From: a virus
Strand: one strand, 5' to 3'
DNA: 64,000 nucleotides
Virus record (IMG/VR): IMGVR_UViG_3300030838_000001
Location: 210,026 to 274,025 of that record
A program made the translations under genes and the position numbers. Shown here piece by piece: positions 8,956 to 30,196 of the stretch. Each line of letters starts with the position of its first letter. Within the stretch, counting starts at the first letter, position 1. The notes beneath the pieces are model-generated. The model was not told the DNA's origin. It was given only the letters and a program-made list of their open reading frames with translations, and searched no databases.

Positions 8956-9753
8956 ATGAGAACAAGAGTAGCACCGTCACCAACTGGAATTTTCCATTTG
9001 GGAACACTTAGAACAGCATTATTAAACTATTTACTGGCTAAGGCAAACGGTGGTGATTTCATTCTCCGTATTGATGATACCGATGTAGTTAGAAATGATG
9101 ATAAATACATAGATTATATCTATGACCAAATGAAACACTTTGGCCTTAATCATGACCTAACGTTTAAACAGTCAGATAGACTAGCACGATATGCAGAAGT
9201 TGCCAATAAGATTGGTTTTGCTTCACCTGATGGAATAAAGTTGAATATGGGTGACTATGATATGGTTATTCTTAGAACAAATGGATATCCAACATATAAC
9301 TTTGCAAGTATTCTTGATGATTATGACTACGATATCACTGATTTTGTCAGAGGTGTAGACCACATCAACAATCTAGATAAACAAAAACATATTTGGGACT
9401 TGATTGCAAGTGTTTATGGTGATAAGCCTTTTCCAAATGTAATTCATGCTGGATTGTTATTTGATGGGAAGAGTAAGTTATCGAAAAGAAGCGGAAACGG
9501 AACGACAGCTGACTATGTTGACTTTGATAAGGATGCATTATTAAATTGGTTGTTTAAGATGGGTTGGTCTCATAAGGACCCGAATTTCGATAGAGATTTT
9601 CCTTTTTTACTGATGATTCAAATGATTGCTTTCTTTAATGATGGTAATATCACGAAATCTAACTGTAAGATTGATAGACCAAAGCTTGATTTTTTGAATA
9701 AAAAACATAAAAACTTTAAGAAATTCAAAGAAAGTTTTGGTGAATTCAAATAA
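8956..9753 (+). CDS. Glutamyl-tRNA synthetase-like catalytic domain
   Basis: 265 aa class I synthetase core. HIGH motif is FHLG within RVAPSPTGIFHLGTLRTAL; then ILRIDDTD, YPTYNFASILDDYDYDITD and RGVDHINNLDKQ; the KMSKS equivalent is KLSKR. Cellular GluRS is about 470-500 aa, so the C-terminal anticodon-binding domain is absent, as in GluQ-RS (YadB). It could charge phage tRNA-Glu independently of anticodon or act on another acceptor. Lies beside a cluster with three tRNA-Glu genes. Confidence 0.85.
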   Translation: MRTRVAPSPTGIFHLGTLRTALLNYLLAKANGGDFILRIDDTDVVRNDDKYIDYIYDQMKHFGLNHDLTFKQSDRLARYAEVANKIGFASPDGIKLNMGDYDMVILRTNGYPTYNFASILDDYDYDITDFVRGVDHINNLDKQKHIWDLIASVYGDKPFPNVIHAGLLFDGKSKLSKRSGNGTTADYVDFDKDALLNWLFKMGWSHKDPNFDRDFPFLLMIQMIAFFNDGNITKSNCKIDRPKLDFLNKKHKNFKKFKESFGEFK

Positions 9754-12744: not shown

Positions 12745-13380
12745 ATGGCAGTAACAAAACCAACAGCGAAAAAAGGAAGCGTAGCTACAGAGCAAATCGT
12801 AGGGCAAGCGGCTCAACAAATCACTAAAGCAGTAGCAGAATTAGCAGGAGCTACAAAAACTATCGAAACACTTGTTTCTCAATCTGAGGAATTAACACTT
12901 TTGGTAGCTAACAAAGAAGAACAAATTAAAGATTTAGATGTTCAATTCGCAGAAAAAGAGCGTCAATTAAACGTTAACTTGGATTTAAGTTTCAAAGCTA
13001 ACGCTGAGAAAATGGTAAGCGAAAATTTATCTGCAAATGGTAAAGTAGCTATCTCTTCTACAGAATTGAAAGAATTACGTTCTGAGTTAGAAACTGTAAA
13101 ATCAGGTACAGAAGCATTAGTGAAAAAAGAGACTGCAATCATTGCGTCTACGTTGAAATCTCAACACGAGAATGAAATCAAATTGATTCACTCTGAAAAC
13201 AAAGCTATTGCCGCTGAAAACGCTGCTAAGTTAGGTTCGTTAACAAAACAAAACGAGTTCTTAGAAGAGCAAGTAACTAAATTGTACTTACAATTAGACG
13301 CTGAAAGAGCGGCTGGTACAGAAAGAGCAAAAGCTGGTTCAATCGGGAACATCACTGTTGGAGAAACAGGTCGTAAGTAA
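12745..13380 (+). CDS. Coiled-coil protein, 211 aa
   Basis: Low-complexity Ala/Lys/Thr N-terminus, then nearly continuous heptad-like helix from about residue 15 to 190, ending in a Gly-rich tail. Codons differ from neighbours (many GCT/TCT), suggesting high expression. Together with 14262 and 15046 it precedes a transporter locus; likely structural or membrane-associated, not identified. Confidence 0.65.
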   Translation: MAVTKPTAKKGSVATEQIVGQAAQQITKAVAELAGATKTIETLVSQSEELTLLVANKEEQIKDLDVQFAEKERQLNVNLDLSFKANAEKMVSENLSANGKVAISSTELKELRSELETVKSGTEALVKKETAIIASTLKSQHENEIKLIHSENKAIAAENAAKLGSLTKQNEFLEEQVTKLYLQLDAERAAGTERAKAGSIGNITVGETGRK

Positions 13381-13432
13381 TCGTTGACAAAAAGAAAGGT
13401 CGTCTAAATCGTAATTGGTTTAGACACCACAA

Positions 13433-13446
13433 GGTATAAAAAAATT
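13433..13446 (+). repeat. 5' strand of helix flanking permuted tRNA
   Basis: GGTAT then AAA then AAAATT; pairs with AATTTT-G-ATACC at 13567-13578, bringing together the outer ends of the permuted tRNA halves. Immediately followed by CG and TTCAGCA. Confidence 0.7.
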
Positions 13447-13465
13447 CGTTCAGCATAAAAAGCAA

Positions 13466-13554
13466 TTCCAAACTTCGGGTCGTAGGTTCGAGTCCTACCC
13501 TCTCCACTAGGGTTATAATCGGAGAGGTAGCTCGGTCGGATTAGAGCAGAAGTC
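13466..13554 (+). tRNA. Circularly permuted tRNA-Gly (TCC)
   Basis: The 3' half comes first: TTCCAA, anticodon 3' strand ACTTC (13472-13476), variable GGGTC, T-arm GTAGG-TTCGAGT-CCTAC, acceptor CCTCTCC and A (to 13506). After a 14-nt linker comes the 5' half: acceptor GGAGAGG (13521-13527), TA, D-arm GCTC/GAGC, A, anticodon 5' strand GAAGT (13549-13553), C. Acceptor pairs 7/7 and anticodon stem 5/5. Joining C13554 to T13466 gives a 75-nt tRNA with the standard Gly loop CTTCCAA. Anticodon depends on that junction. No 5' acceptor half fits upstream in normal order. Confidence 0.8.
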
Positions 13555-13566
13555 AGCAAAAAAAGC

Positions 13567-13578
13567 AATTTTGATACC
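13567..13578 (+). repeat. 3' strand of helix flanking permuted tRNA
   Basis: AATTTT, G, ATACC; pairs with 13433-13446. The segment between the tRNA half and this strand (AGCAAAAAAAGC) nearly repeats AGCATAAAAAGC found before the 3' half. Confidence 0.7.
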
Positions 13579-13582
13579 CCAT

Positions 13583-13701
13583 ATAGTAGTCGTCTAGTGG
13601 ACAAAGACACCGCCCCTGTATTCGTGTATGAGGTTCGACTCCTCTTTAGCAGTGGTGGTATGACGTAGGTGGAAACATTGGTTCAAATCCAATCTGCTGT
13701 A
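13583..13701 (+). tRNA. Interrupted Glu-like tRNA (about 52-nt insertion in anticodon loop)
   Basis: 5' half: acceptor ATAGTAG, TC, Glu-type D-arm GTCTAGTGGACAAAGAC, anticodon strand CCGCC (13610-13614). 3' half: GGTGG (13668-13672), AAAC variable region as in the Glu tRNAs here, T-arm ATTGG/CCAAT, acceptor CTGCTGT. Stems pair with wobbles. The insert carries an extra T-arm-like hairpin GAGG-TTCGACT-CCTC. Mature anticodon unresolved. Confidence 0.55.
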
Positions 13702-13785
13702 CAAAAGGTTCCTCTTGCCTTACAAGAGAATAAAAAAGATTATTTCAGCAATCAAACAAAAAAAATCTATTTGAAAGAGAGCGGA

Positions 13786-13850
13786 GGGGTTCGACTCCCC
13801 ATTTGTCTATAAGAGGTATGACAATTTGTTGTAACGGTAGCACTAATAAA
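13786..13850 (+). tRNA. Second candidate permuted tRNA
   Basis: T-arm GGGG-TTCGACT-CCCC and acceptor ATTTGTC (13801-13807) precede, after 12 nt, a 5' half with acceptor GACAATT (13820-13826, 6 of 7 pairs), TG and a D-arm TTGT AACGGTA GCAC. Outer sequences 13726-13742 and 13857-13870 form GAGAAT/ATTCTC plus AAGATTA/TAATCTT with an AAAA/G internal loop, the same design as around the permuted Gly tRNA. The anticodon arm is weak, so this is less certain. Confidence 0.5.
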
Positions 13851-13874
13851 AAAAATTAATCTTGATTCTCACAT

Positions 13875-13945
13875 ACTTCTGTCGTCTAAGTGTTAGGATG
13901 CCCTCGTTGTAGAGGGTGATAGTGGTTCAAATCCATTCGGAAGTG
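13875..13945 (+). tRNA. tRNA-Thr (TGT) with 6-nt anticodon loop
   Basis: Acceptor ACTTCTG/CGGAAGT, D-arm GTCT/GGAT, anticodon stem CCCTC/GAGGG with loop GTTGTA (U33, TGT, A37, position 38 missing), T-loop TTCAAAT. 71 nt. Confidence 0.75.
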
Positions 13946-14094
13946 CAAATACTGACCTCCACTTCAGTAATTATTTCGTTTTTTAGAGGTGGCTCCCTTT
14001 CCACAATTGTGGATATAACCAAAAATTGCTGTGGCAGACCACGGGCATCTGATAGGTCAACTATCTATACAGGGGGCGAAACTAAATGTTTTAA
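13946..14094 (+). ncRNA. Noncoding tail of tRNA cluster
   Basis: Contains ACCTC/GAGGT, the palindrome CCACAATTGTGG and GATAG-GTCAA-CTATC, then runs into a terminator. No gene or tRNA recognised. Confidence 0.35.
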
Positions 14095-28040: not shown

Positions 28041-28114
28041 AAAGATAAAAAATGATTTCAGCAAATATTATCATCAAACTTTTAATTTGAAACAGATATA
28101 TCATTTTGTTCTTT
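28041..28114 (+). ncRNA. Spacer RNA element E3 with Lys anticodon-arm mimic
   Basis: Outer helix AAAGA/TCTTT, internal loop TAA/GT, inner helix AAAATGAT/ATCATTTT, then TTCAGCA, the same plan as around the permuted tRNAs. Inside is TCAAA-CTTTTAA-TTTGA, a 5-bp stem with the exact tRNA-Lys(TTT) loop. Ends 2 nt before tRNA-Tyr. Confidence 0.6.
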
Positions 28115-29413: not shown

Positions 29414-30070
29414 ATGGGAAGAAAAGTAAAAAATATACATTACATTTATAAAATAACGTGTAATGTGACAGGAAGGTATTATGTAGGAATGCGTAGTACT
29501 TGTAAAGAAGATGATAATTACATGGGTTCAGGAAAAGTTCTCAGATATTCAATACGAAAGTATGGTGTTGAAAACCATACAAAAGAAATTCTGAGTTATC
29601 ATGAAACACGTGAGTTATTAGTTGAAGCTGAGATATTAGCTATTACTGCTGATATGATTACAGATAAGAACTGTATGAATATTAGATTAGGTGGTTCAGG
29701 TGGTTTCACAAGTGAAGAAGCGAAAAAAGGTAGACTAGCGACAGATAAGATTTTATTTGAAAAATTTGGTGATGATTTTAGAATAATAATAAACCAAAAT
29801 TATCATAATAATATGTCTGAAACTGAAAAAATTGCTTTTAGTAATAAAGTAAAAGTTGGTCAACAAAGTAATGGCTATAATAATATAACTTTCAAGAATA
29901 AAAGGCATTCAGATAAAACAAAACAATTAATGTCTAAACCAAAAAATATTGGTGAAACAAATTCACAATTCGGAACTTGTTGGATAACTAAGGAAGGCAT
30001 TAATAAGAAGATTAAGAAAGAAGACCTTGATACATTTATCACTGATGGATGGGTTCAAGGAAGAAAATAA
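29414..30070 (+). CDS. GIY-YIG homing endonuclease
   Basis: 218 aa. N-terminal catalytic domain with HYIYKITCNVTGRYYVGMRS (the 'GIY-YIG' strands as YIY and YVG) and later conserved Arg/Glu/Asn residues (NIRLGGSGG). C-terminal part Lys/Asn-rich with a likely DNA-binding NUMOD-like region (FKNKRHSDKTKQLMS). Start placed at 29414; an earlier in-frame start lies inside tRNA-Gly. Inserted between a tRNA-Gly and an interrupted tRNA. More AT-rich than neighbours. Confidence 0.85.
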   Translation: MGRKVKNIHYIYKITCNVTGRYYVGMRSTCKEDDNYMGSGKVLRYSIRKYGVENHTKEILSYHETRELLVEAEILAITADMITDKNCMNIRLGGSGGFTSEEAKKGRLATDKILFEKFGDDFRIIINQNYHNNMSETEKIAFSNKVKVGQQSNGYNNITFKNKRHSDKTKQLMSKPKNIGETNSQFGTCWITKEGINKKIKKEDLDTFITDGWVQGRK

Positions 30071-30075
30071 CATAA

Positions 30076-30196
30076 GGGGGTATTAAAATATTGGCAAACG
30101 GCATTCTGCAATTTAAAAAAGAATGATTACTGCAAAATTCAAAAAAACAATCTGTAACATTGAAATTAATACGTGGTTCGATTCCCGTTGCCCCCA
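30076..30196 (+). tRNA. Interrupted tRNA-Tyr-like gene (about 45-nt insertion)
   Basis: Acceptor GGGGGTA (30076-30082) pairs with TGCCCCC (30189-30195). Near the 3' end CAAT-CTGTAAC-ATTG is a Tyr(GTA) anticodon arm with the same loop as the tRNA at 28256. The T-arm loop is TTCGATT with a one-base bulge in the stem. Extra sequence lies between acceptor and anticodon arm and has near-repeats CTGCAATTT and CTGCAAAATT. Lies just after the GIY-YIG gene. Confidence 0.5.

What the first reader, a model, noticed from the sequence alone, without database searches (positions are those of the whole stretch)
13433..13578. Circularly permuted tRNA-Gly gene in a phage
The 3' half (13466-13506) precedes the 5' half (13521-13554). 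Acceptor GGAGAGG/CCTCTCC pairs 7/7 and anticodon stem GAAGT/ACTTC 5/5, with a normal D-arm and T-arm, and the join C13554-T13466 yields the standard Gly loop CTTCCAA and 75 nt. Outside the halves, GGTAT-AAA-AAAATT (13433-13446) pairs with AATTTT-G-ATACC (13567-13578), forming a helix that holds the two ends together. Permuted tRNAs are known from a few algae and archaea and need cutting and ligation; I know of no phage case, but could not search.
Basis: partly seen in the sequence, partly recalled or inferred. Interest (0 to 1): 0.95.

Follow-up and report, generated by a model that had tools for sequence, protein, structure and literature searches.

The report
Phage Y-RNA-like permuted tRNA mimic
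A large phage carries small RNA genes whose transcript would fold like a transfer RNA with its two halves in swapped order; look-alikes beside Ro60 genes show that it is kin to the bacterial Y RNAs, known tRNA mimics, in a variant for which no Ro60 partner gene was found, rather than a gene for a new tRNA.

Summary
In detail: at 13433-13578 a tRNA-like 3' half precedes a 5' half, with 7/7 acceptor and 5/5 anticodon-stem pairs and a two-part helix joining the ends. It is not chance (1 such hit in 150 shuffled windows). Relatives keep seven of eight helices through compensatory changes. A model built without the window finds this element (77.5 bits) and a second one at 13709-13887 (62.1 bits).

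Maturation into a tRNA is not supported. The same permuted module stands beside Ro60/TROVE genes in other viral contigs and at 12 of 12 Bacteroidota TROVE loci examined, so the element is kin to bacterial Y RNAs. 14 of 55 elements close the acceptor stem with a UUCG/GNRA-type cap, which leaves no tRNA 3' end (the window's own 15-nt linker is not capped). No RtcB or tRNA-splicing endonuclease was found in the phage record.

Unlike known Y RNAs it has no TROVE gene in its record, bears TTCAGCA in its basal stem and keeps an anticodon arm. By defining features it is not filed as YrlA. Best reading: an unspliced Y-RNA-like tRNA mimic, perhaps a decoy; expression and function are untested.

The parts
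13433..13446 (+). basal stem, 5' strand: outer helix GGTAT 13433-13437, AAA, inner helix AAAATT 13441-13446
   Evidence: covarying counterparts in relatives
13449..13455 (+). TTCAGCA motif close after the inner helix, marker of the variant without TROVE
13465..13505 (+). 3' piece: anticodon loop ATTCCAA 13465-13471, anticodon stem 3' strand 13472-13476, variable loop, T arm 13482-13498, acceptor 3' strand 13499-13505
13506..13520 (+). 15-nt linker closing the acceptor stem
13521..13554 (+). 5' piece: acceptor 5' strand 13521-13527, D arm 13530-13547, A26 13548, anticodon stem 5' strand 13549-13553, C13554
13567..13578 (+). basal stem, 3' strand: inner helix AATTTT 13567-13572, G, outer helix ATACC 13574-13578
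13416..13595 (+). whole element as matched full length by model R2, which was built without the window
   Evidence: 77.5 bits, E 2.2e-14
13709..13887 (+). second, more degenerate element; outer helix GAGAAT 13726-13731/ATTCTC 13865-13870, inner AAGATTA 13736-13742/TAATCTT 13857-13863, TTTCAGCAA 13743-13751
   Evidence: (62.1 bits, E 5.1e-11)
28049..28107 (+). possible short relative: helix AAAATGAT/ATCATTTT with TTCAGCAA, enclosing only an anticodon-arm-like hairpin TCAAA-CTTTTAA-TTTGA (UUU)
   Evidence: z -0.93; single case, not tested for conservation; similar chance helices occur at other motif sites

Best explanation
The element is a gene for a Y-RNA-like noncoding RNA. Its transcript pairs its own 5' and 3' ends into a two-part basal stem. 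The rest folds into a circularly permuted tRNA mimic: T arm, closed acceptor hairpin, D arm, and an anticodon arm formed across the point where the two stem strands leave. The RNA is used as it is, without cutting and ligation (inferred). The basal stem most likely holds a protein and the tRNA-like cargo engages tRNA-binding enzymes. For this phage variant without a Ro60 gene, which keeps anticodon arms of many kinds, the likeliest job is a decoy or adaptor for tRNA-targeting enzymes (anticodon nucleases, tRNA modification or decay enzymes). Shown: structure, covariation, homology to RNAs beside Ro60 genes, closed acceptor caps in some relatives, no hits for TROVE, RtcB or EndA. Inferred: transcription, protein partner, decoy role. 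Confidence: about 0.85 for a Y-RNA-like tRNA mimic, about 0.35 for the decoy role.
For: R2, built from 15 relatives without the window, finds both window elements full length, far above the next hit in the phage record (77.5 and 62.1 against 34.8 bits). In R2's alignment 24 of 33 pairs have changes on both sides, 87 such cells against 29.8 in shuffles, 0 of 500 shuffles as high. RF02553 YrlA matches relatives full length: 51.6 bits next to a TROVE ORF in L186, 41.4 and 41.2 bits in L026 and L023. Elements lie 115-116 nt upstream of TROVE ORFs in L186 and L187 and near TROVE in many of the 51 loci. R1, built from 26 TROVE-adjacent elements (187 both-side-changed cells against 58.6 in shuffles), finds a full-length match at 12 of 12 Bacteroidota TROVE loci not used for it (best per locus 45.5-112.8 bits; 12 of the 19 genomes with TROVE). 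31 of 55 elements form a 5/5 virtual anticodon stem with U33 and purine 37, against 0.85% of shuffled flanks; TROVE-adjacent ones do so too (18 of 28; others 13 of 27). 22 of the 23 other elements with the CAGCA-like motif have an inner helix of 6 bp or more next to it. Caps and linkers. PMC8394870 (passages) describes YrlA as an end-paired stem plus a tRNA-like domain modified by DusA and TruB, tethering Rsr and PNPase; PMC7790460 (passages) proposes that YrlA's tRNA-like domain could competitively inhibit an anticodon nuclease.
Against: RF02553 matches are all below the gathering score of 69; the window's is only 29.3 bits, not far above tandem tRNAs of the same record (24.3 and 23.2 bits), and weak YrlA matches at E up to 10 ring in 13 of 14 control genomes. 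No TROVE gene was found in the window's record or 12 further records, so the classical partner is missing. R1 matches only the tRNA-like module of the window element (40 bits, positions 39-115; next 31.8 bits), not the Ro-type basal stem, and R1 scores tandem ordinary tRNAs up to 49 bits elsewhere (L240). The TTCAGCA stem also occurs as an insert in tRNAs of normal order, which could be read as an intron. The window linker is 15 nt without a cap, and its break lies in the anticodon loop, unlike 28 of the 31 elements with a 5/5 arm. Nothing here shows expression or function.
Confidence: 0.7

Rival explanations
1. [quoted passage not shown]
For: Perfect virtual cloverleaf in the window and 5/5 virtual anticodon stems in 31 of 55 elements. 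ARAGORN calls a tRNA in 43 of 44 joined sequences against 6 of 55 as they stand (not independent, since a candidate anticodon arm was required; 11 of 55 had none). tRNAs of ordinary order carry the same kind of stem as an insert of about 50 nt, e.g. L024 325-442 and L026 4266-4389 (4 of the 8 hits). Known permuted tRNAs have linkers of 1-74 nt (PMC3978253 passages), so a short linker alone excludes nothing.
Against: TROVE-adjacent elements show the same virtual arm, so it does not imply splicing. UUCG/GNRA-type caps in 14 of 55, variable base after the acceptor, CCA after it in 2 of 55. No strict bulge-helix-bulge at the junction (read by eye, no program run). No RtcB or tRNA_int_endo in 8 records tested. 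Two ordinary tRNA-Gly(UCC) genes in the same window. Possible partial cargoes such as an anticodon arm alone could not give a tRNA.
Confidence: 0.12
2. A phage Y RNA that binds a host Ro60 (Rsr) protein and retargets it or PNPase.
For: Homology of the tRNA-like module to RNAs beside Ro60 genes. TROVE occurs in 19 of 247 genomes drawn from the phylum of a Bacteroidota MAG. L167 lies beside a TROVE gene yet lacks the TGnYGhA motif, so that motif is not needed everywhere.
Against: The basal-stem motif TGnYGhA of the TROVE-adjacent set (25 of 28) is in 0 of the 27 others, window included (motif chosen after seeing alignment A3). The host is unknown and TROVE is uncommon in that phylum sample.
Confidence: 0.18
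3. Decayed remains of tandem tRNA genes that happen to pair.
For: The region is a large tRNA array with odd and partial tRNAs. At the same place L027 has only a 5' remnant (by eye), and the second window element is degenerate, so some copies do decay.
Against: Position after the same ORF in L023-L026, and compensatory changes in 7 of 8 helices including both parts of the flanking stem; two elements found by a model built without the window.
Confidence: 0.02

Closest known systems
YrlA / bacterial Y RNAs (Rfam RF02553; partner Ro60/Rsr, TROVE PF05731)
   Same: Ends paired in a basal stem; T arm, closed acceptor hairpin and D arm in permuted order; relatives next to TROVE genes in other viral contigs.
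   Different: No TROVE gene found in the window's record; TTCAGCA stem instead of the TGnYGhA stem of most TROVE-adjacent elements; a complete anticodon arm (also present in many TROVE-adjacent relatives); score below the Rfam gathering threshold.
Circularly permuted tRNA genes of algae and Thermofilum
   Same: Order 3' half, linker, 5' half; complete cloverleaf when joined; ends brought together by a helix.
   Different: No strict bulge-helix-bulge seen, closed tetraloop caps in some relatives, no splicing enzymes found in the phage records, kinship to Y RNAs.
Permuted tmRNA (RF04321)
   Same: Permuted tRNA-like domain.
   Different: Only 17.4 bits at the window element (gathering 47); no mRNA-like part was looked for or seen.

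Membership tests
Bacterial Y RNA (YrlA) | End-paired basal stem plus permuted T arm, acceptor hairpin, D arm | tested here: met
Bacterial Y RNA (YrlA) | RF02553 at or above gathering score (69 bits) | tested here: not met
   29.3 bits, positions 23-85; best relative 51.6 bits
Bacterial Y RNA (YrlA) | Ro60/TROVE gene nearby or in the genome | tested here: not met
   0 of 1 own record, which may be incomplete; 0 of 12 further records, many of them fragments and two (of L065 and L002) without a known element; present in 2 of 15 others
Bacterial Y RNA (YrlA) | Basal-stem motif of TROVE-adjacent relatives | tested here: not met
   R1 does not align the window's stem. The motif is mine, not a published definition
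Bacterial Y RNA (YrlA) | Binding of Ro60/Rsr | not testable with these tools
   needs a binding assay
Circularly permuted tRNA gene | 3' half before 5' half, complete cloverleaf on joining | tested here: met
Circularly permuted tRNA gene | Bulge-helix-bulge at the junction | tested here: inconclusive
   flanking stem is helix, 3x1 internal loop, helix, then long single strands; read by eye, no BHB program run
Circularly permuted tRNA gene | Processing to a mature tRNA through a circular intermediate | not testable with these tools
   needs RNA from infected cells
Circularly permuted tRNA gene | Splicing endonuclease and ligase available | tested here: inconclusive
   no PF01974 or PF01139 in 8 records incl. 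own; a host enzyme or another ligase family is possible and was not searched

The most novel reading that the evidence does not exclude
The stem with TTCAGCA is an excisable insert of a new kind that these phages place in tRNA genes of ordinary order and, in permuted form, around swapped halves; the permuted genes then mature through circular RNA, which would be the first permuted tRNA genes of a virus or bacterium with such a route that I know of.
Probability: 0.12. Interest if true: 0.95.

Novelty: new variant of a known kind. Interest (0 to 1): 0.6.

Why it matters
It links circularly permuted tRNAs with bacterial Y RNAs: RNAs beside Ro60 genes often hold a complete permuted cloverleaf with a varied anticodon arm (18 of 28 here), and some large phages keep such RNAs with a different basal stem and no Ro60 gene found. 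If they are decoys, they would be RNA-based counter-defence against tRNA-targeting immunity; if they are spliced, phages would have permuted tRNA genes. Both can be tested with RNA from infected cells.

Tried and rejected
Chance pairing: rejected. Ordinary or intron-bearing tRNA at these coordinates: not called by ARAGORN or Rfam at gathering scores. tmRNA or permuted tmRNA: 17.4 bits only. Phage-encoded Ro60, RtcB or splicing endonuclease: none found; other RNA ligase families were not searched. BLAST of the region against phage records gave only the neighbouring 104-nt conserved stretch; BLAST of a relative gave Rhodobacter phage RcXuper. R1 as a stand-alone test: weak, since tandem tRNAs score up to 49 bits. 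Free energy: uninformative.

Selection and dropped rows. It contains the CAGCA motif, so nine elements in six loci (L033, L038, L060, L070, L096, L121) have it by selection; of the 18 others not found that way 14 have it, the exceptions being L161 (two), L167 and L181. The 55 elements were hand-picked from descriptor hits that demanded T arm, acceptor and D arm but no anticodon arm or stem. The group of 27 'others' includes L167, which does lie beside a TROVE gene. L228's element lies just after its TROVE gene and L237's about 1 kb before. The second window element failed the descriptor and is not among the 55. A3 uses 26 of the 29 elements (L197, L216, L236 left out). The motif regexes were written after looking at A3 and A4, and its ACTTC regex allows variants (28 of 28 and 4 of 27; strict ACTTC 25 of 28 and 2 of 27). 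The automatic stem search picks doubtful helices in several rows, so no outer-helix count is taken from it. I did not fold a protein or identify the host.

Full report
What is there. A 3' tRNA half (anticodon loop ATTCCAA, anticodon stem, variable loop, T arm, acceptor strand) is followed by a 15-nt linker and a 5' half (acceptor strand, D arm, anticodon strand). The acceptor pairs 7/7 and the anticodon stem 5/5. A two-part helix, GGTAT/ATACC and AAAATT/AATTTT with AAA against G between, joins the ends. In 150 dinucleotide shuffles of the window, both strands, such an arrangement came up once. The free energy alone is not unusual. ARAGORN and Rfam at gathering scores call no tRNA here; the joined halves are called tRNA-Gly(tcc).

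It is conserved. Relatives of the 211-aa ORF just upstream (12745-13380) led to a contig with the same sequence (L022) and five further loci. In L023, L024, L025 and L026 the same position holds one or two such elements with different acceptor sequences that still pair 7/7, with two or three GU pairs; L027 has only a remnant there (by eye). Pattern scans and BLAST brought in further ones, including the isolated Rhodobacter phage RcXuper. In an alignment of 15 of them without the window, 24 of 33 pairs show changes on both sides, and 87 cells do so against 29.8 in shuffles, with 0 of 500 shuffles as high; sliding the partners destroys it. Seven of eight helices have such pairs; the two C-G pairs across the break do not vary in that way. 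The linker columns are imperfect and the outer helix is paired in 65% of cells only. A covariance model from this alignment finds the window element full length at 77.5 bits and a second element at 13709-13887 at 62.1 bits; the next hit in the 274-kb record has 34.8 bits.

It is kin to Y RNAs. Rfam's YrlA (bacterial Y RNA-like) matched the window at 29.3 bits (E 0.0014), two relatives full length at 41.4 and 41.2 bits and others more weakly (24.1 and 21.3 bits), and L186 at 51.6 bits. All lie below the gathering score of 69, tandem tRNAs of the window's record reach 24.3 bits, and weak matches (E up to 10) occur in 13 of 14 control genomes, so the window's score alone proves little. TROVE (Ro60) was absent from the window's record and 12 other records but present in 2 of 15 further records. 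In both, the element lies 115-116 nt upstream of the TROVE ORF on the same strand. Loci around TROVE genes, 8 bacterial and 43 viral, often carry the same permuted module: 36 of 51 have some descriptor hit, among them some ordinary or chance ones. A model from 26 of these (187 both-side-changed cells against 58.6; T arm, acceptor and D arm were selected for, the inner helix and anticodon arm were not) gives a full-length match at 12 of 12 TROVE loci that were not in it, from the phylum of a Bacteroidota MAG (the 12 are the best of 19 genomes with TROVE among 247 drawn). The same model matches only the tRNA-like module of the window element, at 40 bits, and scores tandem tRNAs up to 49 bits in another genome. 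PMC8394870 (passages) describes YrlA as an end-paired stem with a domain like the D, T and acceptor arms, modified by DusA and TruB, tethering Rsr and PNPase. From memory, not read: Chen et al. 2014 reported Y RNAs near Ro60 in many bacteria and phages and named them tRNA mimics. PMC7765460 (passages) says that YrlA has been reported in several phages.

The anticodon arm. When the two pieces are read as joined, 31 of 55 elements give a 5/5 anticodon stem with a 7-nt loop that has U33 and a purine at 37; shuffled flanks do so in 0.85%. In 28 of the 31 the break lies after position 27 or 28; in the window it lies in the loop. The loops vary: UCC in the window, GUU, AUU, UGU, UUU, GUC, UGG, CUG, GGA, GAU and others. 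TROVE-adjacent elements have the arm as well (18 of 28) as the others do (13 of 27). The arm can form without ligation, since its outer one or two pairs close across the break in those 28.

Why not a tRNA gene. Linkers of 5 nt or less close 25 of 55 acceptor stems; 14 are UUCG- or GNRA-type caps (3 of 27 and 11 of 28). Such a cap leaves no discriminator and CCA. The base after the acceptor is not constant, and CCA follows it in 2 of 55. No RtcB or tRNA-splicing endonuclease was found in 8 records including the window's. The window has two ordinary tRNA-Gly(UCC) genes. Known permuted tRNAs have a bulge-helix-bulge at the junction and linkers of 1-74 nt (PMC3978253 passages); linker length alone therefore decides nothing, and the window's own linker is not capped.

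What is different from known Y RNAs. 25 of 28 TROVE-adjacent elements have a TGnYGhA motif in the 5' flank; 0 of the 27 others, window included, do. A CAGCA-like motif stands in 23 of the 27 others, against 2 of 28. Nine of the 27 were found with a pattern that contains this motif; of the 18 others 14 have it. 22 of the 23 have an inner helix of 6 bp or more next to it, and in 21 a G lies within two bases after the helix. L167 is an exception: it lies beside a TROVE gene and has neither motif. So the phage variant keeps the tRNA-like cargo on another stem, in records where TROVE was not found. Since defining features were tested and not met, I do not file it as YrlA; it works like one.

The same kind of stem also appears with other cargo: as an insert of about 50 nt in tRNAs of ordinary order (L024 325-442, L026 4266-4389, L033 2747-2871 and L121 10729-10849 minus strand; 4 of the 8 hits), around an anticodon arm plus T arm (L021 8305-8382), and around an anticodon arm alone (window 28049-28107). 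These last two are single and untested; one search examined 161 motif sites and also lists helices inside genes that are probably chance.

How it most likely works. Shown: the fold by covariation, its conservation, its kinship to RNAs beside Ro60. Inferred: the RNA is transcribed, stays uncut, is held by a protein at the stem, and offers a tRNA-like face with an anticodon arm. PMC7790460 (passages) suggests that YrlA's tRNA-like domain could compete with an anticodon nuclease. For a phage with a large set of tRNAs and no Ro60 gene found, a decoy against tRNA-targeting defence is the simplest role that explains varied anticodon arms without tRNA ends, but nothing here tests it.

Literature. Searches for permuted tRNA with phage or virus, for YrlA, Y RNA, TROVE and anticodon and for anticodon nuclease decoys showed no title or abstract start on Y-RNA-like RNAs in phages without Ro60; only the listings were seen, apart from the passages cited. 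The library is open-access only, and the key Y RNA papers are not in it.

Noticed in passing
window 13583-13701; L023 1155-1269; L024 4556-4672: A tRNA of ordinary order with an insert of about 50 nt in the anticodon loop that carries a T-arm-like hairpin; present at the like place in L023, L024 and L025 with acceptors that differ and still pair by eye.
   Followed up: partly
window 13984-14087: A 104-nt stretch 85% identical to the 462-kb phage record LR756500.1 and conserved in L023, L024, L025 and partly L027; no convincing Rfam match.
   Followed up: partly
L024 325-442; L026 4266-4389; L033 2747-2871; L121 10729-10849 (minus strand): tRNAs of ordinary order that carry a stem with a CAGCA-type motif as a closed insert in the anticodon arm.
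   Followed up: partly
L021 8305-8382 (phage record 208305-208382): Helix AAGATAGT/ACTATCTT with TTTCAGCAA around an anticodon-arm-like hairpin TTTGT-CTCATAA-ACAAA and a T arm, without acceptor or D arm.
   Followed up: partly
OP186293.1 3259-3561 and 3686-3749 (L188 1060-1362, 1487-1550): Rhodobacter phage RcXuper has a permuted tmRNA (RF04321, 108 bits) and a YrlA-like match (40.7 bits) in a stretch where the record shows no annotated feature.
   Followed up: partly
window 8956-9753: 265-aa ORF with a glutamyl/glutaminyl-tRNA synthetase catalytic domain (PF00749), short for a whole enzyme (recalled).
   Followed up: no
window 30060-30185: Possible tRNA of ordinary order with a CATTCT/AGAATG hairpin and TTACTGCAA insert, loop CTGTAAC (GUA); read by eye.
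   Followed up: no
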